From Podochytrium sp. JEL0797 (taxonomy: Eukaryota; Chytridiomycota; Chytridiomycetes; Chytridiales; Chytriomycetaceae): 57,018 nucleotides of DNA. The stretch is taken from assembly GCA_027596195.1 (NCBI GenBank), contig JADGJG010000060.1, forward strand, positions 1 to 57,018. Reading direction: 5' to 3'. The notes beneath the pieces were generated by a model, which saw only the letters and a program-made list of their open reading frames with translations, was not told the origin of the DNA and ran no database searches. This document shows, in pieces, positions 2,384 to 33,985 of this stretch (within the stretch, counting starts at the first letter, position 1; each line of letters starts with the position of its first letter). Made by a program: the position numbers and the translations under genes.

Positions 2384-2727
2384 TTTGGAGAAAATTCAAC
2401 GCTCAAGGACCCATTTCGTGTGATGAGGATGGTGGTGTTCGGGAGGTGAATGAGTCAAAAATCCAAAACCACGCAAAAACAAACAAAACATCCCACCTTG
2501 ACCACCAATCTCACTCGCACACGCACTGCATTGCATCACATGTCATTCACCTTTGCCTCTCTGAAGGAATCAGGGCTAAATGGAACAATTTGGAGCTCGC
2601 GAGTTGCCTTGGTTGTCGTGAACAGAGATCCCTGTCTCGCCGTGCGAATTGTTGTAACAGGAACTTCAGCCTGTTAGCGTTCAGAGTGACAGTCTCGCAT
2701 ATAGTAGTGTACGCTTTCATTTATTGA

Positions 2728-3950
2728 ATGAAAGTCTCTGTGTAAATCTCCCTTCTTCCTCCTTCAACAATAAGTATATAATATTTAATGCGTGTCGTTA
2801 TCCAACGACCCATATGGTGTAGTAGCAGGTACCCCCTGTGATGTTACAACTGTAACTCGGTCTGCATATACTTGGATGACACCCGTCGCCTTGTGTGTTT
2901 GTTGAGTAGAAGAATAGAAGAGTAGCTGATTAGCACTGGATTTGACACGCATTCAATGACGCTTCAACACGAATATCCCAGCGTGTTTCACATTATCACA
3001 CGCAACCATTCTCTCTGGAGGGCGTCAGGATTCGCTCGGTCAGCAGAGGTGCTTGTTGAAAAGTCGGCAGAACACGAGAGTGTCAATGGCCGTCGATCGA
3101 AGAAGATGCACAATACCTGCTCACGGTCGTCGGCGGCAGCCTCGTCATCGACTTCCATGGCCTCGTTGACGCCCACATCGTTTACCTGGAGATGGCAGGC
3201 GTCAGTTCGACACATGCATGTGGGCCACATTTGAAGGCATTTTTACCTGGGGCAGGTCGACTGGAAGATCTGGCAGAACCAAATCCGATTGACTGGTTGT
3301 GTCGTTTCTTCATACTCTCGGGTGTAGTTTTTTTCGAAGAGTTTTCTTTTGGTTGGCGAAATCGAAACACCACATCTCTTCTCCCCTCGAAATCGAATTG
3401 ATCCAGCCATGCAAAACAGTGTTGGAAGCCGTTTCAGGGCAGACTAACGAGTCACGTGATCTCTTACGTAATGAGTGGATATAATGGCAGCTTGCTGTGT
3501 TACCAATAAATCATTGATTTCTTCCCCCAAATTCCCCCGTTTCACTCCTCCATTCCATCCCACTTACAACTCCCCCAGCTCCTACGCATCCGCTACCGGA
3601 CTGCCCCCGTTGCCTAGTGCAATAAACAGTGCGAGTGCTCCACTAGACGTGACAAGCGAGTGAGCGAGTGCTGGATCGGGTGGCACGCGAATGCGAAAGT
3701 GGATCCCCTCGCTGCAACAATTCGGACACGCCGGATCCCACCTCACAGCGCACCCACGGCTCAGCAACACGAGTAGATGCATCGAAAGAGTGCATGGCAT
3801 AGTCATGGGGTGCCGTGGGAGGCGAGATTGTCGCACGATCGAAAACGCCCCGCCACTGCTCGCACTTTACACGCACGACCCCACGACCACCTAGCGAATC
3901 CCCCGCGCAACAGATTCGTGAATCACGAAGCGCGTAGAAGCGTGTGAGAG
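2728..3950. other. Intergenic stretch, no supported gene
   Basis: Several 60-130-codon frames occur on both strands. A minus-strand frame at 3373-3182 begins MVFRFRQPKENSSKK, and another near 3200-3100 contains EAMEVDDEAAADD, but their splice phases do not join. A small basic/acidic protein gene is possible and cannot be established. Nothing else was recognised. Confidence 0.4.
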
Positions 3951-4173
3951 TGTCGCTATTTGAATGCACCCAGACGCGTTTCCACCGTTGGCGTTTTTTT
4001 GTCACTGCGCCGAAACTCGACATTCAGCCGGCCACCATCGCAACCACCATCCCCCACACATCAAACCAAGTCAAATCATGCATAAACATGCTCTAGAAAT
4101 GTAGAGAAGCCAAAAACGCGGTATTTCAATGCACCCGAACGCGTTTGAATCGGTGGCGTTTTTTGTCCGAGCG
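3950..4173. repeat. Two copies of a ~52-bp repeat
   Basis: A unit of the form atttNaatgcaccc, then acgcgttt, then ggtggcgttttttgtc occurs at 3950-4003 and 4121-4173, on the same strand. The two copies differ at a handful of positions. The 117 bp between them shows nothing recognisable. Confidence 0.75.
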
Positions 4174-4700
4174 AAATAAAATGTTCAAAAATTGAAATTA
4201 ACACCATTCTCACTCATTTTATGGCCGAGTATTAAAAAGTAGGTCGGGGGCGGGTGGGTGCGCGTGGGTGGGGGTGCCTGGGTGCGGATTGCCCAGGCAC
4301 GAAATTTTCGCGGACGAAAAAATCGGACAAAATCAAAAATGGGAGGCGAGCAAAAATGGGTCTGCGCACAACTTCACAAGGGAGCTTCGCTGACAAGGCA
4401 AGCTGCGCACAACCCTCGCGAAAAATCAATTAGTGCGCACAGTGGAATGTCGCTTGAAAAATTTAATTAGTATTTGCGCAACAGAGGATTTGTAATATTT
4501 GACTGTACCCAAATGCATCAATCAGCACTCCTTCATCTCCGCCGTCTCCACACTCGCCGTGGTCCTTCTGGACAAATGCACAAAGACAAAACGCGCGTGC
4601 ATCAATCAATATCTTGGGAAACGCCGCAACGAGAAAAGCACCGGCATCACCTTTTCCACACAATCCCCAATTATTAAAATGTATCAAACCGATCCTTTAC
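4174..4700. other. Intergenic stretch downstream of the transporter
   Basis: No gene is supported. Short frames on both strands have no family resemblance and no splice continuity. The stretch follows the stop codon of the minus-strand transporter gene and probably carries its 3' untranslated region. Confidence 0.5.
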
Positions 4701-7329
4701 TCAAAAGATCCCCACCCCACCCACCACAACCGTCCCCACCGCCGCCGCACATCGATCCAACGGAATATCCGCATCCCCCCCAGCCCATTTGCTCACAGTA
4801 ATATAAGTCGTATACACCAACGCAACGAATCCAAAAAGCGCCAGCAACAAGTCCGAGAGCTGTGATTTAAAATTGAGTGTATGTGTGTGTCAGAACGCGA
4901 GAACCCCCACAAAGCAAAGGTTTCAACCCCCAGGGGTACGAAAGAAAAAGAAGCCTTGTTTTACCTTGACCCACGGATTCGTCGTGATTTTGAAATGGAA
5001 CAACGAAGGGTAAATGAAACTATCAAGTTTGAGAACGAAAAAACCAATTCAGCACCACCCAAAACCCCCCCGGAAAAAATAACACCCTCACCTCAAAGGA
5101 ATACAAGCAAAACACCCCACAAGACTAACAAACTTATCCAAATTGCTACTCCCAACCCACGCAACGCCCCCCAAAACCGCCACAAAAACCGTCCTCATCA
5201 AATTCTTTTGCCACTTCACAAGCGCGCTGCGTTTTCCATCAGCGAGACCAAAGATGGCGCTTTCGGTGATTCTGATGCTGGGGTACACGCACAACGGAAA
5301 CGAAAGCACGATCGCAATCACATAGAAAAACTGCAGACTCTGCACGACTGGACTCCCCTTGGGCATATTCAAAAACACAACCGTTTCGACTTTCGACCCA
5401 AAAGCAAGGTACCCCGTCGCCCCAATCAACACAAAGATGGTCCCAATAATGAAAATGCAGAGTGACAGGACGCGGGGGAAATGTTGCGGCTCCTTCATAG
5501 ACTCCGCAATCGGAAGAATGAGACAAATGCCCTCAAACGCAAACAGAGCCGTGCCGATGAAGATGGGGAACGTGTCCATATTGAACCAGAGAATGTCGGG
5601 AGCAGGACCCACGGTTCCCACGACGTACATATCATACCCGAAAATGTACATGAGTCCCATCAGGATAAACACGTCGGCAATCAAGGACGTGACTGAAAAC
5701 GTCTTGATTTTCCTCACCCACGACAGTGGCACGTAAATCAACACCTGGAGGACGATAAAGACCCAATCCGGCAAGATAACTTGGCAGTTTGTCGTGAGCA
5801 TGACGAGGTCACGGAGGTTTTGGGCCACGAAAATGTAATAGGCGCAGCAGAAACCGGCTTGGGAGACGGCGATCGAGGCAAGCACGAGGGTGCGTACATG
5901 AGGGCCGTATAGCTTTTCGCCAATGTCGCCGTAGGAGCCGCCGAGGACGTGGTTTGTTTCGACGAGGAGGAGCATGCAGTGGAGGGTCATCCTGGAGTGA
6001 GTGGGGGGGAACGGACGAGAGTTGGGAAAAAGAGAAGGAGAATAAGAAAACCGCGAAATCACAATCCCCCTCACAAACGAAAAAGAAATTCACCATCCAA
6101 ACACAATCGTCAACACAACACTCAACGCCATCCCACCCTGCGCAAACGCCTTGGGCAAAAACAGAACCCCAGTCCCCACAAAAGCCTTCATGAGCATAAA
6201 AAACGCCTTCTTTGGCGAGGTTCCCTTCACGTTCGTGGCTTCCGTAATCGCGCGTGTGGATTGTCGACGAATCAATGGAGTTCGCTCCGAGACGTGCGGG
6301 TGGGCAGAGTTGGATGCGGTGGAGGAGTCAAAGTCATGCAGATGGCGGATGGGAGTGGGTCGTTGGATCACGATGCCAGGGAGTTGTTGAAATCCGTTCA
6401 AGTTGTCGACGCCAACGACATTGGACCACTCCTCGTCCCCGGGTTCACCGCCTTCGTCCTCCTCGTCATCATCCTCGTCTTCAGGAACAACATCCCCCCC
6501 ATAGAATCCATACAAGGCCAAAAAGTCGATGAAATTCCTCGTCAAGAAGGTCACATTTTTGCCTTCGCGTTCGGCACGCTCGGAAATGAATCGTCTTCGG
6601 AACACGCCGGGTTCACGCAACTGGGTAACGGTCACGGCATCGGGGGTGTCACGCAGGGCCGTGCTCTGGAGGTCAGGAAGCGAAAGGCGGCGGGGACGCG
6701 TGGACAGCGATCCTTGCGAAAGGGTTGGAGACGTGGCGCGGTTTCTGTCGGCCCATTCGTAAATGTCGTTGGTGATGGAACCTGATTGGTTGTTAACTAT
6801 CGATAAAAGGAGGAAGGGTGGTTACCTCCTTGCAGGTTGTACGGTGCCTTGTTTTTGAAGGACGAAGACAGCAGACTCTCGTTGAGATCTGCATTGGGCC
6901 CATCGTCTCTCCGCACCAGGTGTTCTTCAATCAGGGCAGCGGCAGCCTGGTCCTGAAGAGGAGTCGAGGGTCGCTTTGGTTCGCGGCTGAGAAAGAGTCA
7001 AGTGAGTCAGGAGAAGTGTCTAGGAAACACAAGTCAAGAAAAGCTCACATTTTCTCGTACTCGCTCCTCAGGGCATTGCTCTCCGCGGCACTAGACGAGA
7101 TGCTCGACACGCCCTTGAAAGAGCGCGGGAAGCTGCGTCCGAGACTCGAGGCAAAGCCAGGCGCGCTGCTTCCAGACGGGACCCGCATGGCAATGGGAAG
7201 CGCGGCGGATGCGGAGGATGCCGGGGAGGCCACTGGCTGCGTGGTCACCTGCAGCGACTGGGGCGTGATTGTTCCGCTCGACGAGTCTGACGCGCTGGTC
7301 TTCTTCTTGGTCTTCTTCTTGCCGGCCAT
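4701..7329 (-). CDS. Vacuolar amino-acid transporter, Avt3/Avt4 (SLC36) type
   Basis: Six exons join in frame (7329-7049, 6986-6826, 6781-6094, 5991-5092, 5019-4965, 4859-4701) to give about 747 aa. The start follows from the basic N-terminus MAGKKKTKKKT. A long cytosolic Ser/Thr-rich and acidic N-terminal region of about 330 residues contains the family marker GSITNDIYEWA. About 11 membrane segments follow, beginning at KAFVGTGVLFLPKAFAQGG and including FEGICLILPIAESM. The last two exons restore the family's C-terminal end (FIYPSLFHFK and a final helix). Fungal Avt3/Avt4 export neutral or basic amino acids from the vacuole, and animal SLC36 relatives act at lysosomes. The substrate here is not deducible. 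The second intron, at 44 nt, is among the shortest in the window. Family assignment is firm; the exact paralogue is not. Confidence 0.92.
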
Positions 7330-7741
7330 GCGAGGAGTGTGTTTGTGTTTGTTTTTGGGGTGATCGGAAAATTTTAACTTTTGCCTCCGTGCCGAGTCCA
7401 CACCGAAATGAATCCTACGAACCCTGCTTTTAGAGATTATCGCAAAAGTGATAAGAAGTCATTGGATTCCATGATCATCTCATACTCAACTCGATTGGAA
7501 AAAACGTTGCGAATTCTAGAATTCACTAAGAAAAAAACAAATCCGCGAAACTCGAAATCGCGTTTTCCATTCTAATTCTCTTTGAAAATACGTTTCCCAT
7601 TCGTGATTATCGATTTTGTGGAAGGAATCTTTAATAATCCGCAAACGCGAACCCCTTGATTTTCAGGAAAACAAATCCTCGAAACTCGAAAACGCGCCAC
7701 CCGACACCACCCGACACCCCTTCCCTCCCACCACTCCACCA

Positions 7742-9570: not shown

Positions 9571-11574
9571 ATGTCCTCGCTAACCATCGACGCTGATTCC
9601 GACGACCAAGCGAACGCCTTGATTCTCAAACACACTCATGAACTGCCGCAACTCACGGCCGAGCCCAAAGACACTGCCGAGCGAGAATTTGTCTACCTCG
9701 CAAGGCGATTCGTGGCGTGCTGTCGAGAAGGGAATTACGCAGAGTTTCAGTTTCCGAGTGACTTTGTGTGTCCGAGTTGAGTTTGGTTGATTCCTTGTTT
9801 GATTTGCGAATATGGCAGTCTTGCCCCCATTCTTACACTATGCGTTGTTTTACTGCTAGTCACACACGAGCTCATGATTGATCCCGTGTCCACCGTTCTT
9901 GGCTCCGTGTACGAACGCAAAGCAATCACGCGACACCTTCGCAACAGCAACACGAATCCCGAAGACGGCCGGACGCTTCGTTCCAAAAATCTCGTGAAGG
10001 ATTGCGTCGTCAAGCAGCGAATTGAGGCGTTTGAGGTGGCCGTGCTTGAGACCGGAGATGTTGCTGCCATTGCCGAGTTACGCGGGTTGCTCCCTTTGCC
10101 GACGGAGCCGCCTCCTCAATATGACGAAGACCATGAAAACGTGTTGCTTGTTGCCGAAAAGAGTGGAAGTGGGGATGCCACCCCGTTAGTTCACCATCAC
10201 CAGTTCTTGGACCCTTACGCTGTCCCGACACGCGACGCTCCGGAGGCTTCTCATGCGGCATATATACAATCTGCGAAGGCAATTAATACTGCCAAACTCG
10301 CGTTTGCTGCCATATCGCGCTTGGTCTCTCCGAATGTAAAGAATCTGCACCACCTTCCCGTTGACTCGATTCGGTCTGTTCTCGGCTCTTACATGCATGC
10401 CAAGCTCGCGAACGTAGTTTCTCGTGGACGTTCCTCGTTTGGTGAATACAAGTACTCGACTAACCCAATCACCGTCTCGAATCACGTGTTTCACAAGCTC
10501 GAACGGTTGAGTCGGATGGTGTTGCTTCAATTCACGGGTGCTGAGTTTCGCTACATTTGGTGTGAGGTTATCAAACCGTTTCGGAGAGAGTTGTTTAATC
10601 GCGTGTACGCGGGTTCGCCGATTGTCAGAGCGTTTGGGGATAATATCGCTGGGGGCCATTTGATGTGTCCAGATTTGGATGATTATTCGCTTGGATTGCA
10701 ATCTGCGTATTCAGGAATGTTTACGCGTCGTGGGACAGGTTCTTTAGCGGCTTGGAGGAATCAAATGGGGTCAGATCGGAGACCCTCTGGGTTGGAACTG
10801 TTGAGTCAAGTGCATACCGTGTTTTTGATTGATGATTCTGGGAGTATGGCGGGCGGGGCAGTGAGTTATGGGTTCTCGGGGTCCTTGTATTCGGATTTTG
10901 CGGCGTTGAGGTACAAGTCGCGGTGGGATCAAGTGAGGGACTTGTTGGCGGATTTTGCGCCTATCGTCACGCAGTATGACCCGCATGGGCTCAGTCTCTT
11001 CTTCCTCAATGCTCCCACGATTCATACCAAGATTCGATCCTCAGATGCCGTGAATGCAGTGTTTCGTTCCAACAGGCCGAATGGGGGAACTCCATTGGGA
11101 CGACGCGTGAATGATATTCTGGATGCTTATATGACGTGTTTGAGGTATGATCGCAATCTGAAGCCGTTGAATTTGGTTGTGTTTACGGATGGGGAGAGTC
11201 AGGATGAGGAGGTGTTGAAGCATTCGATTGAGAGTCATGTGCATCATGTGATGAATCGGGGGTATGTGGCGCATCAGTTGGGGATTGGTATGGTGTTTTC
11301 GTTGTGGCTTTGATGGAATAACACTGATGAGTTTGTTTACCTGATAGAGTTTGTTCAAGTCGGGGACGACGCAGAAGCCACGCGCCATCTTCGCGAGATT
11401 GAAGAAGAAGTCTCCTGGCACCACATGAACTATGGCCGTGACATTGTTGGGGTCACGCCCTTCTTGGGAAATCAGGGGCGCATGTTGGATTCGGAGCTGT
11501 TGACGAATGTGATTTTGTCGGGGATTGACGCGAGGGTGAATGCGTACATGAGGCGTAGAAATTTAAATGTTTGA
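9571..11574 (+). CDS. U-box plus von Willebrand A domain protein
   Basis: Three exons (9571-9775, 9860-11287, 11348-11574) give 619 aa. Joining exon 1 to exon 2 creates the U-box core CPITHELMIDPV and continues YERKAITRHL. The U-box occupies roughly residues 65-135. A vWA domain lies near residues 375-550, with the metal-binding (MIDAS) signature DDSGSM, a later Thr/Gly segment (NGGTPLGRR) and VVFTDGESQDEE. vWA domains bind protein partners, often through Mg2+. The combination suggests an E3 ubiquitin ligase with a vWA substrate or partner module. No membrane segment or signal peptide is visible. The 84-nt first intron splits the U-box. It is monocistronic, and targets are unknown. Confidence 0.85.
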
Positions 11575-12884: not shown

Positions 12885-13090
12885 GCAAACCGCTGTGATT
12901 TGACTGCAAACGATTTACAATTTGCAATAGAATTGATTCCATGGCCCGCAACTGAGAGACTTGATCCTTTGCGAATTAAATAGCAGTATTGAGTTCCTGC
13001 AGGCTCACCAGCCTCCTCACCAGATTGCTCAGTCGTTTTGCCTGTGCTTGGCGGGTGGCACTGTGGCGGTGCAGCTTGCTTGGAATTTTT
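12885..13090 (-). pseudogene. Inverted, decayed copy of the TIR gene 3' end
   Basis: Read on the minus strand from about 13090, the sequence encodes KLHRHSATRQ, SNLVRRLVSLQ and, after a stop, AMESILLQIVNRLQS. The intact TIR gene has KLHCHPSSPR, KNLVRRLVSLQ and AMESIAPQIINRLQS in the same order. DNA identity is obvious over atggaatcaatt and cgtttgcagtcaaa. In-frame stops and length changes show it is dead. It lies about 1.2 kb upstream of the intact gene, in opposite orientation. Confidence 0.85.
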
Positions 13091-13732: not shown

Positions 13733-14324
13733 AAAATGAACCATTGACCGGACTCAAGTCATAGGTTTATATTTCCATGACTTATCGGTTTCAGAAAAGA
13801 ATAAAGATTGGATGTTATAAAAGATGTCTTTCAACATTCAACCACCCCACATGCCGTCGCTTCCGAAGCCGCAGAAATCGCTCAGTACAATGACGGAGTC
13901 CGCCGGATATCTCAAAAGACCGCCACGCGGGCCCCACGAGTCATCTACTTGCTTTCTACTTTTCATTTCACTCCCTTTCGCCGCTGGAAAGCGCGCTTGG
14001 TGCTGGTCTCGTTTCCATTTCACTATTTCAGCTAAATAGAGTCAGTGACGCCGAGATGGATCTCTTTTACATCCGCGTGCGATGGAGATAGTCGCCAATT
14101 TGAAAAATTCCACCGACGAGCACCTGTCAAATTCACCACGACTCGAGCAGACTCCTTCCACTGCGTCTCGATTCTACCGATCCTTCTCCGCTGATAGTTA
14201 CGCCCACCGCCTCTCCCTGCAGGTATCTTGCCTTACTTCCGGCCTGTCATCCAATTTGAGTTTCTGAGCGGGAATGGATTGTTCACACCGCAGCATTCCT
14301 CTCTTCCACCTCCTCCGCAAGTCA
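13733..14324. promoter_or_regulatory. Upstream region of the TIR gene
   Basis: The 590 bp between the stop of the small gene and the TIR start codon contains no supported coding sequence. It must hold the 3' end of the former and the promoter and leader of the latter. No specific promoter element was recognised. Confidence 0.35.
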
Positions 14325-15858
14325 ATGAGTTCGAATACATGGGATCCGCCCCTGAGCACATCGGAAACGTTGAAACACATTCCGGAAGCACCAGTCATCA
14401 AAACACCACGCCAACCGGAAGCGACTTCCATCACGACCGTAGCCTCCTCGAGTTCCACCAACGAGAACTGGTCTTGCCGCCGCGGCCACATTATCCACGA
14501 CGTGTTCATCTCGTACAAAAACCTGAACCTGTCCCTCGCGTTCGAAATCGCCGCCAGATTGGAGCTCATGTCCACCATCACCGACAGAACTTTCAAAGTG
14601 CATCTCAGCCGTATGTGTCTCAACATGGGCGCAGACGTTGTTTCCGAGGCAATCAACGAGTCCCTGCCGCGTTCGAAAATCTTGGTGATTTTGATTTGTT
14701 CGACAATGCTGGAGGGATTCAAGACAGCAAACAAGCAGTTGTCGTGGCCGTTACAGGAGTTGGAAAAGGCGTTGGAGCTGGACGGGAGGCCCATGATTCT
14801 GCCTGTGTTTGTGGACATGGTTGTCGACGAGATTAAGTTAGACGAATATCCAAACGGTTTGTTTTTGAATCCGTTTTTTCGCGCGATTTCTAACACGCGA
14901 TATTTTCGTTTTGCAGAAAAACACTTTGGCAATAAATTCAGCGTTCTCGGAATGACAATCCGCGAAATGATGACTCGCGTTATATCTCTGAAGGGGTGTT
15001 ACTTTGCCAACATTCCCGGACGCGCCGACGTGGAAGGTCTTGTTTCCAAGATTGCGGCACAGGTTGTCTCGTTGGAGCAGCGAGATTCGCGCTGGAAATG
15101 GTTGGCCGAGCCTGCGGCGGGAAAAATGCTTTATGATGCATTCATCAGCTATCGCGTTAACACCGAGTCCAAGCTGGCCAAAGCATTGTATTACGTTTTG
15201 AGCTCCGAAAGGCAAGCTGTCAATGGTAAATGTCAAAATTCCGTATGGAGCATTCAACTGATTTCCTTTTCGTTTTGACTACATTCAAGGTATCGAACGC
15301 GGCTTGAGAATCTATTTGGACCAAATTCGCCTCATCAACGGCGAGAAATGGGAAACAGGCTTCATCAACGGCCTCCGCTGCTCCGACGTGGTCATCTTCC
15401 TCATCTCACCCGCTTCCATCCTCCACCTCAAAAACGCGGACATACAACCTGACTCTGTCCTCCTCGAAATCGAAATCGCCTTTGACCTCCTTGACCACCG
15501 ACGCGACCGCACGCTCATGATCCAGCCTGTGTTCATCAATGGGATTCCTGAGCCAAAAGATTTTCCCGACAAGCTGCACTGCCACCCATCGAGCCCACGC
15601 ATGGCAACTGTGAAAAATCTCGTGAGAAGACTGGTGAGCCTGCAGGGGCTGAGAGTTTCTGTGGATTCCGCCAAGGATCAGGGCACTCAGTTGTTGGAGG
15701 CCATGGAATCAATTGCGCCGCAAATTATAAACCGTTTGCAGTCAAAATGGGAGCGGCAACGCGTTGTGGCGGGAAAGATTTTGGTGCCAATGGCGGCAGT
15801 GGAAATGGACGCGGAGATGGAGGGGTTGACGCGGACTGCCACAAATTTTAATTGTTGA
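14325..15858 (+). CDS. Protein with two tandem TIR domains
   Basis: Two exons (14325-15225, 15290-15858) give 488 aa. TIR-1 spans about residues 60-200: it opens HDVFISYKNLNLSLAFEIA and has SKILVILICS and PMILPVFVD. TIR-2 spans about residues 278-430: it opens LYDAFISYRVN, continues RIYLDQIRLINGEKWETGF and DVVIFLISPAS, and has MIQPVFING. In NADase TIRs (SARM1, plant and bacterial TIRs) a Glu after the LxxG region is catalytic. WETGF in TIR-2 supplies it, whereas by eye the aligned TIR-1 residue is Val. TIR-2 could therefore be enzymatic and TIR-1 structural. No NB-ARC, LRR, kinase or membrane segment is present. The 64-nt intron interrupts TIR-2. The domain call is firm; activity is inference. 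Confidence 0.85.
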
Positions 15859-15955: not shown

Positions 15956-16982
15956 GATTCCATCACTATCTTGGCCTCCAACTGATTCAAGATGTCACCA
16001 GTGAATTCCATCACGCGCTTCTTATTCTCCTCATCCGACGGAGTCTCATACACACTCGCCCGCTGCACAACCTTACCCACTAATCATAACACCCATGAAA
16101 ATGACGATTCGTTTCAATCGCACCGTCCCCAAACGACACCGCCTGCTCAAAATCACCACGATGGTACTCCACAACACACAGCAGAGACAAAACACGACGC
16201 GCTGGTGCCGTGGAAGACTGATCCAGACTTTGGAACGCGGCCATCAAATGCGCATGCGCGTCGTTAAAACTCCTTAACCCAATACACGCTTTAGCCGCCG
16301 AAGAGCAGGCGTCAAAGTCAATCACATCGTTTCTGTCCTCTGCGATAAGCCTCTCTGCTTCCTCGACGGCCTCCTCGAACTGCTCCTCGATCACCAACAC
16401 GTCCAACAGCAAACCACGAACAGGTCTCGCAGCGTCAAGACCAGGAACTTTACCCACCTCTTCTTTGACGAGTTTACAGCAATTCAGGACATGTGCATGC
16501 GTTGGGGCGTATTTCGCATCCTCGAGCGACAGTTGGATCCCAAAGGACGGAAGACGACGGTTCGCGCGCTGAAGCAGAATCGCAGCGCGCTGATACACGT
16601 ATTGATGCAGAAGCTCTTGGGCAGGCATGCGACACATTGGACACGCCTGTGAGATGGCAATGGCAGATTGCGGTTGAAGTGAACAGGGTGCGCAGAACAC
16701 GTGGCGGCTGGGTAGGGCGACGGGAGACTCAAGCGGATCGAGGCAGATGGCACAGATGGTGTCCTTGTCGAAGTAAAGTTTCTGAAGAAGCAAAGTGGCC
16801 GTGAGGTCCGCTTCGTGCGAGTGTTGGGTGAGTTTGCGCTGGAAAGTCACACAGACGGGTTTGTGGTCAGGCTTAGCGAGGGTTTGACAGGCCGCCGAGC
16901 AGTAGAATTGGGTCTTGCATTGGCAGATGACAGGAGTGGGGGCGGGTTTGCCGCAGTGGTCGCAAGAAATTTCTAAGTTACT
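15952..16982 (-). CDS. MYND zinc finger plus RING finger protein (5' end unresolved)
   Basis: The N-terminal MYND finger reads SCDHCGKP, then VICQCKTQFYCSAACQ and HKPVC. It is followed about 25 residues later by a RING finger CAICLDPLESP, RHVFCAPC and CPMCR. The rest is helical with repeat-like segments (EAVEEAERLIAEDR, FNDAHAHLMAAFQSLDQ), possibly TPR-like. A 44-nt intron (16123-16080) must be removed to reach the real end: it joins VSFGD to VGKVVQRASVYETPSDEE and ends in LEAKIVMES. RING fingers recruit E2 enzymes and MYND fingers bind proline-containing partners, so an E3 ligase scaffold is likely. No in-frame ATG lies between the MYND finger and an upstream stop; a short first exon before about 16985 is needed and was not located. 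The gene is convergent with the TIR gene. Confidence 0.75.
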
Positions 16983-17063
16983 TTCGCGTGTGATTTGGAA
17001 TTGTCGGACTTGTCAAAACAACTCTTCTCTTTCCTTTCATCGCATTTCTTTCTCAGATTAAAA

Positions 17064-32233: not shown

Positions 32234-33985
32234 CTATTCTCCAAACAAGAGATTTCTCCAATCCTCCACCATCGCACTTCCAAAAATCAGCGCTAAAAAA
32301 CTCCCCAGGCTCGCCATAAGCCCATCCACAACCATCATTTGGGTGAAATCCGGCACTTGCCCGACCAATAACGGCGCGCACTGCCCCTGCGACTTCCCAT
32401 TTAAAACACACGCATACCAATTCTGAAGCCACACAGAACTCGGATCCATCATGCCTTGAATCACTTTGATAGTTTGATAATAATACGTCCAGAGCCACGA
32501 CAAGATCACAGCAAACACAACCGACAAGGCAATCGATCGCCAATAATCTTTCACCATTTGAATCGCCACTTCTCTCCTTTTCTCCCTCCTTTTGATCCTC
32601 TCCTTTTTGGCCGCCTCAAGATCGACAGGAACGCGATCAATCCCTTTCACAAAACTCCCCTTTACCTGGTCAATACCATTCACAGTACTACCCTTTCCCT
32701 CACCCACTTGATTTTCCGATCTGTTGACTCGAGTATGATGACTCGAGATGCTACTACGGTCAAAAGTTCCTCCCATAGCTTCAACTGTAATTTTCGCCAT
32801 GGCAGTTAATGTTCCCACGTGGACAATCAAGGCAGGAAACCCAAGCACAGCAATGGGGTATAAAAACAGTGCGTTGGCGTATTCGGGGCCATACAGGCAT
32901 GATCTACCGCTTGCTTCAATTTGGTTGAGGACCTGCATTGGAGGGGAAACAGGTCAGCAACATGCTCGAATTCGATTGCAACAAACCAGCAAGGCCACAG
33001 CAGGAGCCGCACACGCACCCCAGATAATTGAATGAAAATACGCGTACTTGTCCGCCAGAAACTTGTTTCTCCACACAATATTCATATGAAGCGAAACCAT
33101 GAAAAGCAACGCCCAAATAACAATCAAATAGGAGCAGTACACGATAATGAATCCCTGAACCGCACAGACACGACTATTGGCTTGATTCGAGCTTGTTATT
33201 TCATCGACGCAGTTAAATCGATTTACGTTTCCCGCATTGATGGTAAAGGCAAGGTGGAAAACGATCGCCACGGCTGAAAAGATCATGACAATCATTGCAG
33301 GATGTTTCCGTTTGTTCTTGAACATGACATATGATATGAGAAGATAACTGGCCCCTATCAGCGAAATTATATTCACGATGTCGCAGATGAGATTGTGGGT
33401 AGAAACTGTTTGAGGGTCGTAAAATGAATAGAGCTGCTGGCAAGGCAAACAACACGCGCCCACACAATTTTGCCCAGGAATAGACGGATACGACCCATTC
33501 GCCATATACAATGGATTCGGCTTCAAAAACGAAGGACATTGTGTGATTGCGGTCGCGTTCTGTTGCTCTTTGTGTGTTGACCCGAGACAAGTGGTTGACG
33601 TGGAATACGGCACCGGGAGAACCGTGAGCATCCCATCACAGTTTGGTAAATTGTTGACTTGACCAAAGAGTCCGAACAGAGAAATACATTCCGCGACGGT
33701 GCTTTGGCAGAGAGACTGGCATGCAACGTCACCGAGAGAGTTTGACTTTGAGCTGCTGCAAGAAGGATACGACGCGTAACAGAGGAACTCGACAAAAGTC
33801 GTGATGCATTGTTGATATTGTACCGTGTTGTTCAGTTGGAGAATGATGTCCAGTCCGTGATCTTTCAAGATGCCTTCGATTGTCGGAATCGTGTAATTTT
33901 GACCGAGGAACACGGGATAGTCAATGAGCTTTGAGCAGTAAAGCGTGGGATTTGTGGGGGCCGGAACGTACGGAGCGCAAGACAT
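32234..33985 (-). CDS. Frizzled-like receptor with Cys-rich domain (copy A)
   Basis: Exons 33985-32987 and 32932-32234 give 565 aa; the 54-nt intron uses a gtttgt donor. Residues 1-190 form a Cys-rich, Frizzled-type extracellular domain (CITTFVEFLCYASYPSC, ACQSLCQSTVAEC) with N-glycosylation sites such as NYT and NNT. A CVGACCLPC linker leads to seven membrane segments (about residues 210-560) and a basic, Ser-rich intracellular loop (SSHHTRVNRSENQ; AAKKERIKRREKRREVA). Related proteins occur in Dictyostelium (fsl genes) and zoosporic fungi; Wnt ligands are absent from fungi, so the ligand is unknown. No signal peptide follows the start, so an upstream exon may be missing. Confidence 0.85.

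What the first reader, a model, noticed from the sequence alone, without database searches (positions are those of the whole stretch)
14325..15858. Fungal protein with two tandem TIR domains, one probably catalytic
Two TIR folds are visible back to back (DVFISYK and DAFISYR starts) with no NB-ARC, LRR, kinase or SAM partner. TIR-2 has the Glu expected of NAD-cleaving TIRs within WETGF; the aligned TIR-1 position appears to be Val. TIR domains are sparse in fungi, and an active/inactive tandem would be an unusual self-contained NADase scaffold. Immune or cell-death roles are inference only.
Basis: partly seen in the sequence, partly recalled or inferred. Interest (0 to 1): 0.88.

Follow-up and report, generated by a model that had tools for sequence, protein, structure and literature searches.

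The report
Tandem TIR enzyme in chytrid fungi
A chytrid fungus encodes a protein whose only recognised domains are two linked TIR domains, an immune-signalling module rarely reported in fungi; both keep a glutamate at the position that NAD-cutting TIR enzymes use, so the protein is likely an NAD-cleaving enzyme, though not through the residue first proposed.

The parts
14274..14856 (+).
14857..14916 (+). Intron 1, 60 bp, GTTTGT...TTGCAG
   Evidence: same splicing as the deposited protein
14917..15225 (+). Exon 2
15226..15289 (+). Intron 2, 64 bp, GTAAAT...TTCAAG, inside TIR-2
15290..15858 (+). Exon 3, to the stop codon
14493..15068 (+). TIR-1, residues 74-245 of the 486-aa form (intron 1 lies within)
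14745..14759 (+). TIR-1 WxxxE motif W158-P-L-Q-E162; E162 is the catalytic-Glu position
   Evidence: (weak match)
15123..15756 (+). TIR-2, residues 264-453 (intron 2 lies within)
15349..15363 (+). WETGF (W318-F322), N-terminus of helix alphaB; E319 is not the catalytic-Glu position
15466..15468 (+). E357 of TIR-2, counterpart of SARM1 E642 in helix alphaC
12899..13063 (-). Decayed inverted fragment of the 3' end of the same gene (TIR-2 C-terminal part), with in-frame stops
   Evidence: blastn 73% over 170 columns, E 2e-21; tblastn E 4e-12

Best explanation
The gene encodes a two-TIR protein, found here in four genera of one chytrid family, whose second TIR is likely an NAD+-cleaving enzyme using Glu357 of helix alphaC, with the first TIR predicted to act as its tethered partner. 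Shown by sequence: the tandem, the internal homology of the halves, the Glu positions, and TIR-2's conserved box 1 and BB loop. Predicted: both halves fold as TIRs and E357 lies in alphaC. Inferred: the enzyme site forms head to tail between two TIRs, as described for other TIR NADases; TIR-1, whose BB loop has drifted while its alphaC Glu stayed fixed, would offer a neighbouring surface to TIR-2 of the same chain or of another copy, so that clustering of the protein by an unknown trigger switches on NAD+ hydrolysis. The partner role is the weakest step. A role in cell death or in defence against parasites is only inferred from what TIR NADases do elsewhere.
For: The TIR-2 profile finds SARM1 as best solved relative (E 1.5e-8), with E357 facing E642 (numbering). 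Catalytic-Glu column: Glu in 26 of 27 rows; the exception is TIR-2 of P0004. In the family box-1 Arg and BB-loop Asp are aligned in TIR-2 in 5 of 5, while TIR-1 has Lys in 4 of 4 readable rows and Asp in 1 of 4. Among the three close orthologues the TIR-2 BB loop and alphaB are the best conserved stretches (mean pairwise identity 0.83 and 0.87), the TIR-1 BB loop is 0.46, TIR-1 alphaC 0.67; over all five the BB loops are 0.55 and 0.38. AlphaFold2 models of two orthologues agree; in both second looks the 50 rows shown are all TIR-domain structures. Active sites lying between two TIRs: PMC11364022 and PMC12421889, passages.
Against: TIR-2 lacks the W of WxxxE (S, S, N, D, N in the five), whereas TIR-1 has W, L, F, Y, Y; by that motif alone TIR-1 looks the better enzyme. 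If TIR-1 were a docking partner its DD-loop region should be kept, but it is poorly conserved (0.32 over residues 182-208; 0.59 for the short PNExH patch). One Physocladia copy (P0004) has Gly for the TIR-2 Glu and lacks part of box 1, though its deposited gene model may be wrong. Domain orientation is untested: pTM is 0.59 and 0.55 and no inter-domain error was returned. Over all five members the TIR-2 BB loop (0.55) no longer stands above its alphaC (0.65). TIR-1 keeping its Glu in 5 of 5 is not explained if it is only a partner. I know of no NAD assay, expression or phenotype data, and found none.
Confidence: 0.45

Rival explanations
1. Non-enzymatic scaffold: both TIRs serve only for TIR-TIR assembly, as in MyD88 or TLRs, recruiting other TIR proteins of this chytrid such as the TIR-NACHT or kinase-linked ones.
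For: TIR-2 lacks the W of WxxxE and TIR-1 mostly lacks the box-1 Arg and BB-loop Asp. The genome holds other TIR reading frames, among them two followed by NACHT/NPHP3_N domains, so partners exist. MyD88 and MAL TIRs also match the models.
Against: The alphaC Glu is kept in 5 of 5 TIR-1s and 4 of 5 TIR-2s and in 26 of 27 aligned TIRs; a pure scaffold would not need it.
Confidence: 0.27
2. TIR-1 is also, or mainly, the catalytic domain: its WxxxE pocket is completed by conserved surfaces of TIR-2 in the same chain, giving one or two active sites per molecule.
For: W158-PLQ-E162 lines up with the EWPQKE of the bacterial PdTIR (the profile matches behind it are weak, E 0.018 to 0.91). E162 is invariant in 5 of 5, with an aromatic at the W site in 4 of 5. 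The two halves keep different parts of the classical motif set, and TIR-2's DD region is well kept (0.69 among three orthologues).
Against: TIR-1 has drifted faster (0.46 against 0.65 mean identity among three orthologues), has Lys for box-1 Arg and a poorly conserved BB loop. That the catalytic pocket and its BB loop belong to the same TIR is recalled, not read; the passages give the BB loop of one against the DD loop or betaD/betaE/alphaE of the next.
Confidence: 0.2
3. One reading: TIR-2 catalyses through the WETGF Glu and TIR-1 is dead because it has Val there.
For: E319 is Glu in three of the five TIR-2s (P0001-P0003) and aligns with an acidic residue in SARM1 and worm TIR-1.
Against: That column is Glu in only 12 of 27 TIRs, is Arg in PdTIR, Asp in worm TIR-1, and Lys or Asn in the Physocladia TIR-2s; it maps to SARM1 E604, not E642; V123 faces W318, and one orthologue's TIR-1 has Glu there.
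Confidence: 0.03

Closest known systems
SARM1 / C. elegans TIR-1 (NAD+ hydrolases)
   Same: Best solved relatives of TIR-2 by sequence; SARM1 also tops the matches of TIR-1 by fold; alphaC Glu in the same place.
   Different: SARM1 has ARM and SAM domains and one TIR; here there are two TIRs and no other recognised domain.
Dictyostelium TirE (tandem TIR protein)
   Same: A eukaryotic microbe protein with two diverged tandem TIRs (PMC13142454, passages).
   Different: TirE also carries RCC1 repeats; no such match here. No sequence comparison was made.
Mollusc Toll-2 receptors with tandem TIRs
   Same: An extra TIR-1 beside a retained TIR-2 (PMC4929906, abstract).
   Different: Those are Toll receptors; this protein has no other recognised domain.
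Kinase-TIR and TIR proteins from metagenomes (P0007-P0010, P0012, P0014, P0015) and Polychytrium aggregatum SAM-TIR (P0006)
   Same: Same TIR-2 type: FISYRV, BB-loop Asp, Asp-Asn-x-(L/F/I)-L-Glu in alphaC.
   Different: One TIR each in the parts compared; P0010, P0012, P0014 and P0015 carry kinase and P0006 SAM annotations.
Fungal TIR-NLRs and HET-domain proteins
   Same: Fungal members of the wider TIR group; TIR in NLRs of Chytridiomycota was reported before (PMC9815663, passages), and a small group of fungal TIR-NLRs is cited in PMC10197012 (passages).
   Different: No NACHT, NB-ARC or HET match in the five proteins.

Membership tests
TIR domain superfamily (Pfam PF13676 TIR_2) | Profile match above the curated cut-off, and TIR fold | tested here: met
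   53.6 bits against 28, two stretches; 5 of 5 family members match at E <= 1; both halves match TIR structures
TIR NADase | Glu at the catalytic position in helix alphaC | tested here: met
   E162 and E357
TIR NADase | W four residues before that Glu (WxxxE), TIR-1 | tested here: met
   W158 in Podochytrium; W, L, F, Y, Y in the family
TIR NADase | W four residues before that Glu (WxxxE), TIR-2 | tested here: not met
   S353; S, S, N, D, N in the family
TIR NADase | Cleavage of NAD+ | not testable with these tools
   needs protein
SARM1 | ARM repeats and SAM domains before the TIR | tested here: not met
   no such Pfam match listed at E <= 1 in five members
TIR-NLR (TNL, TIR-NACHT) | NB-ARC, NACHT or other STAND NTPase in the same protein | tested here: not met
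   none listed in five members
HET-domain proteins | Pfam HET match | tested here: not met
   no HET match listed at E <= 1
Dictyostelium TirE type | Tandem TIRs with RCC1 repeats | tested here: not met
   tandem TIRs met, no RCC1 match; TirE sequence not compared

The most novel reading that the evidence does not exclude
A single-chain, self-paired NADase: gene fusion or duplication welded two TIRs together so that the two-TIR active site, which in other TIR enzymes must be assembled from separate molecules, is built in cis, one half supplying the intact box 1 and BB loop and the other the WxxxE helix. It would be a ready-made minimal TIR enzyme and the first fungal one of this layout.
Probability: 0.2. 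Interest if true: 0.75.

Novelty: new variant of a known kind. Interest (0 to 1): 0.5.

Why it matters
True TIR domains are rarely reported in fungi: PMC13142454 found almost none in the EukProt set, only in Rhizoclosmatium globosum, while noting that a few had been reported before (passages). A small protein holding two covalently joined TIRs that both keep the catalytic-position Glu could make the two-subunit TIR active site directly testable in one chain, with clean single-residue controls. The same genome also shows other TIR reading frames, two of them with NACHT domains, which bears on how fungal NLR and cell-death systems began.

Tried and rejected
The WETGF Glu as catalytic residue: rejected. 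TIR-1 as a dead domain on the Val argument: rejected for the same reason; whether TIR-1 is active stays open.

Second domain as a non-TIR Rossmann fold: rejected. Foldseek's top four whole-model rows are non-TIR (KefC C-terminal domain twice, glucokinase regulatory protein, a ribosome-factor entry), but these span most of the chain with rmsd about 20 A and TM under 0.3; by domain, all 50 rows shown are TIR structures in both models.

Origin by internal duplication: the halves are clearly homologous, and an EGFKTA stretch occurs in TIR-1 of P0001 and P0002 and in TIR-2 of P0003, but the tree does not show them as sisters. TIR-1s group together, and TIR-2s group with P0006 unresolved among them; the best tree holding all ten together is 10.7 log units worse with p-AU 0.1, so one origin is neither shown nor rejected; TIR-1 sits on a long branch near SARM1 and P0011. 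Fusion of two TIR genes stays possible.

Defence libraries: NCBIfam gave only sub-cut-off hits for the 2 of 5 members given; PADLOC, with 4 of 5 members given, gave PDC-S66 in 3 (best E 4e-6), one DndD hit (E 2.5e-5) and one Aga-TIR hit (E 0.021), with no curated cut-offs to judge them by. Bacterial-type promoter scan upstream: of no use for a eukaryote. The single-protein search of the own genome listed no second double-TIR copy, only two single-TIR relatives and the relic, from 6 candidates scored. Literature searches for tandem, dual, fungal or chytrid TIRs listed no paper on this family; only the top rows are listed where many papers match (such as 25 of 61, 12 of 3,873), and most subscription papers are not in that library.

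Full report
What is there. The finding's interval holds one three-exon gene on the + strand. Splicing out 14857-14916 and 15226-15289 gives an open frame from ATG 14325 (469 aa) or from the in-frame ATG 14274 (486 aa) to the stop at 15858. The longer one equals the deposited protein HDU98_009465 of Podochytrium sp. JEL0797, a Chytriomycetaceae chytrid. Pfam finds TIR_2 twice.

Relatives. Three searches of the large protein set, each scoring only the roughly 8,000 candidates that share most words, give five members of this two-TIR family: Podochytrium (P0001), Entophlyctis luteolus (P0002), Rhizoclosmatium hyalinum (P0003) and two Physocladia obscura proteins (P0004; P0005, which starts inside TIR-1). 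All four genera belong to Chytriomycetaceae. The other hits (9 of 14, 11 of 16) are far weaker; those compared are of the TIR-2 type: a SAM-TIR protein of Polychytrium, metagenomic TIR and kinase-TIR proteins. One metagenomic protein, P0011, shows by eye two TIR-like starts of its own, the second cut short.

Which Glu. SARM1 numbering computed from the full-length match puts E642 in DWVHKE and E604 in FEDK. The profile alignment sets the first Glu of LLEIE (E357) against E642 and the Glu of WETGF (E319) against E604; the alignment to worm TIR-1 agrees. [quoted passage not shown] PMC7075850 (section 35) names a W and an E of alphaC'' as ligand-binding in SARM1. In the model E357 and E162 lie in the alphaC helices (353-367, 158-168) while WETGF opens alphaB (318-327). 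hhalign of TIR-1 against TIR-2 pairs E162 with E357, W158 with S353, V123 with W318, S124 with E319, S112 with D308 and K82 with R274.

Counts. In a MAFFT alignment of 27 TIR stretches (10 from the family, 10 from other proteins, 4 own-genome paralogues, 3 with solved structures), E357's column is Glu in 26 and Gly in one (P0004 TIR-2); E319's is Glu in 12; the W-site column is W in 4 and N in 13. Left out of that count: P0013, the cut-off second TIR of P0011, and the own-genome TIR places on contigs C445, C786, C488, C275 and C492 and the second one on C177. One row used first (28 rows) was dropped.

What sets the halves apart. Box-1 Arg and BB-loop Asp are aligned in TIR-2 in 5 of 5 (P0004 lacks residues beside the Arg); TIR-1 has Lys in 4 of 4 readable rows and the Asp in 1 of 4. 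Among the three close orthologues TIR-2 is more alike (0.65 mean identity) than TIR-1 (0.46), over all five 0.57 against 0.45; the highest stretches in the three are TIR-2's BB loop and alphaB (0.83, 0.87); TIR-1's alphaC is 0.67, its BB loop 0.46 and its DD region 0.32. So TIR-2 looks like an ordinary TIR except for the W site, and TIR-1 a diverged one with an intact WxxxE.

How it may work. Enzymatic TIRs work as head-to-tail assemblies, the active site lying between two TIRs (PMC11364022), with the BB loop of one meeting the DD loop of the next (PMC12421889; passages). A tandem can supply such a pair in one chain. I therefore favour TIR-2 as the enzyme and TIR-1 as tethered partner, at a little under even odds. 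Against it: the missing W of TIR-2, the poorly conserved DD region of TIR-1, the Glu of TIR-1 kept in all five, and no biochemical data.

Setting. The 24.4-Mb genome gives 13 TIR_2 matches at E <= 0.001 on 10 contigs, a lower bound. Two TIR places are followed by NPHP3_N/NACHT domains; for one, a 63-bp GT-AG intron is among six candidate joins that keep the frame open. One contig has STAND and ankyrin reading frames beside TIR pieces, another a kinase frame beside a TIR piece. Earlier work found no NLRs in chytrids (PMC4986451); later work cites TIR in chytrid NLRs (PMC9815663; both passages). Close by, at 12899-13063 on the - strand, lies a decayed fragment of the gene's 3' end.

Standing. 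TIR domains in chytrids and tandem TIRs elsewhere (TirE, PMC13142454, passages; mollusc Tolls, PMC4929906, abstract) are known; a fungal tandem without other recognised domains I did not find described in the searches listed under Tried and rejected. I rate it a new variant of a known kind.

Noticed in passing
12899-13063, - strand: Inverted, decayed fragment (73% DNA identity, in-frame stops) of the 3' end of the tandem-TIR gene, about 1.2 kb upstream of it: sign of local duplication and loss.
   Followed up: partly
L019 (C786), 2696-4609; L020 (C488), 821-2803: TIR reading frames followed by NPHP3_N/NACHT domains: probable TIR-STAND (NLR-like) proteins in this chytrid. For L019 a 63-bp intron is one of six joins that keep the frame open.
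   Followed up: partly
L022 (C275), 2808-7646, - strand: TIR piece, STAND NTPase pieces, many ankyrin repeats, then a second TIR piece with a Sel1 repeat, in a row on one strand; one or more genes.
   Followed up: no
L023 (C492), 4144-6789, - strand: Protein kinase reading frame followed by a TIR piece and further frames that look Sel1-like by eye.
   Followed up: no
L021 (C320) and L024 (C616): Two close paralogues with a single TIR of the same type as TIR-2 (38% identity to it).
   Followed up: partly
32954-33985, - strand: Weak Frizzled-like cysteine-rich domain (E 4.5e-6, under the cut-off) with a Dictyostelium cAMP-receptor-like membrane part.
   Followed up: no
9787-11313, + strand: U-box domain with a weak von Willebrand A match in one reading frame.
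   Followed up: no
16080-17012, - strand: MYND and RING fingers in one reading frame, next to the tandem-TIR gene.
   Followed up: no
P0011 (metagenomic protein, 478 aa): Another protein with two TIR-like domains by eye, the second cut short; outside the chytrid family.
   Followed up: no
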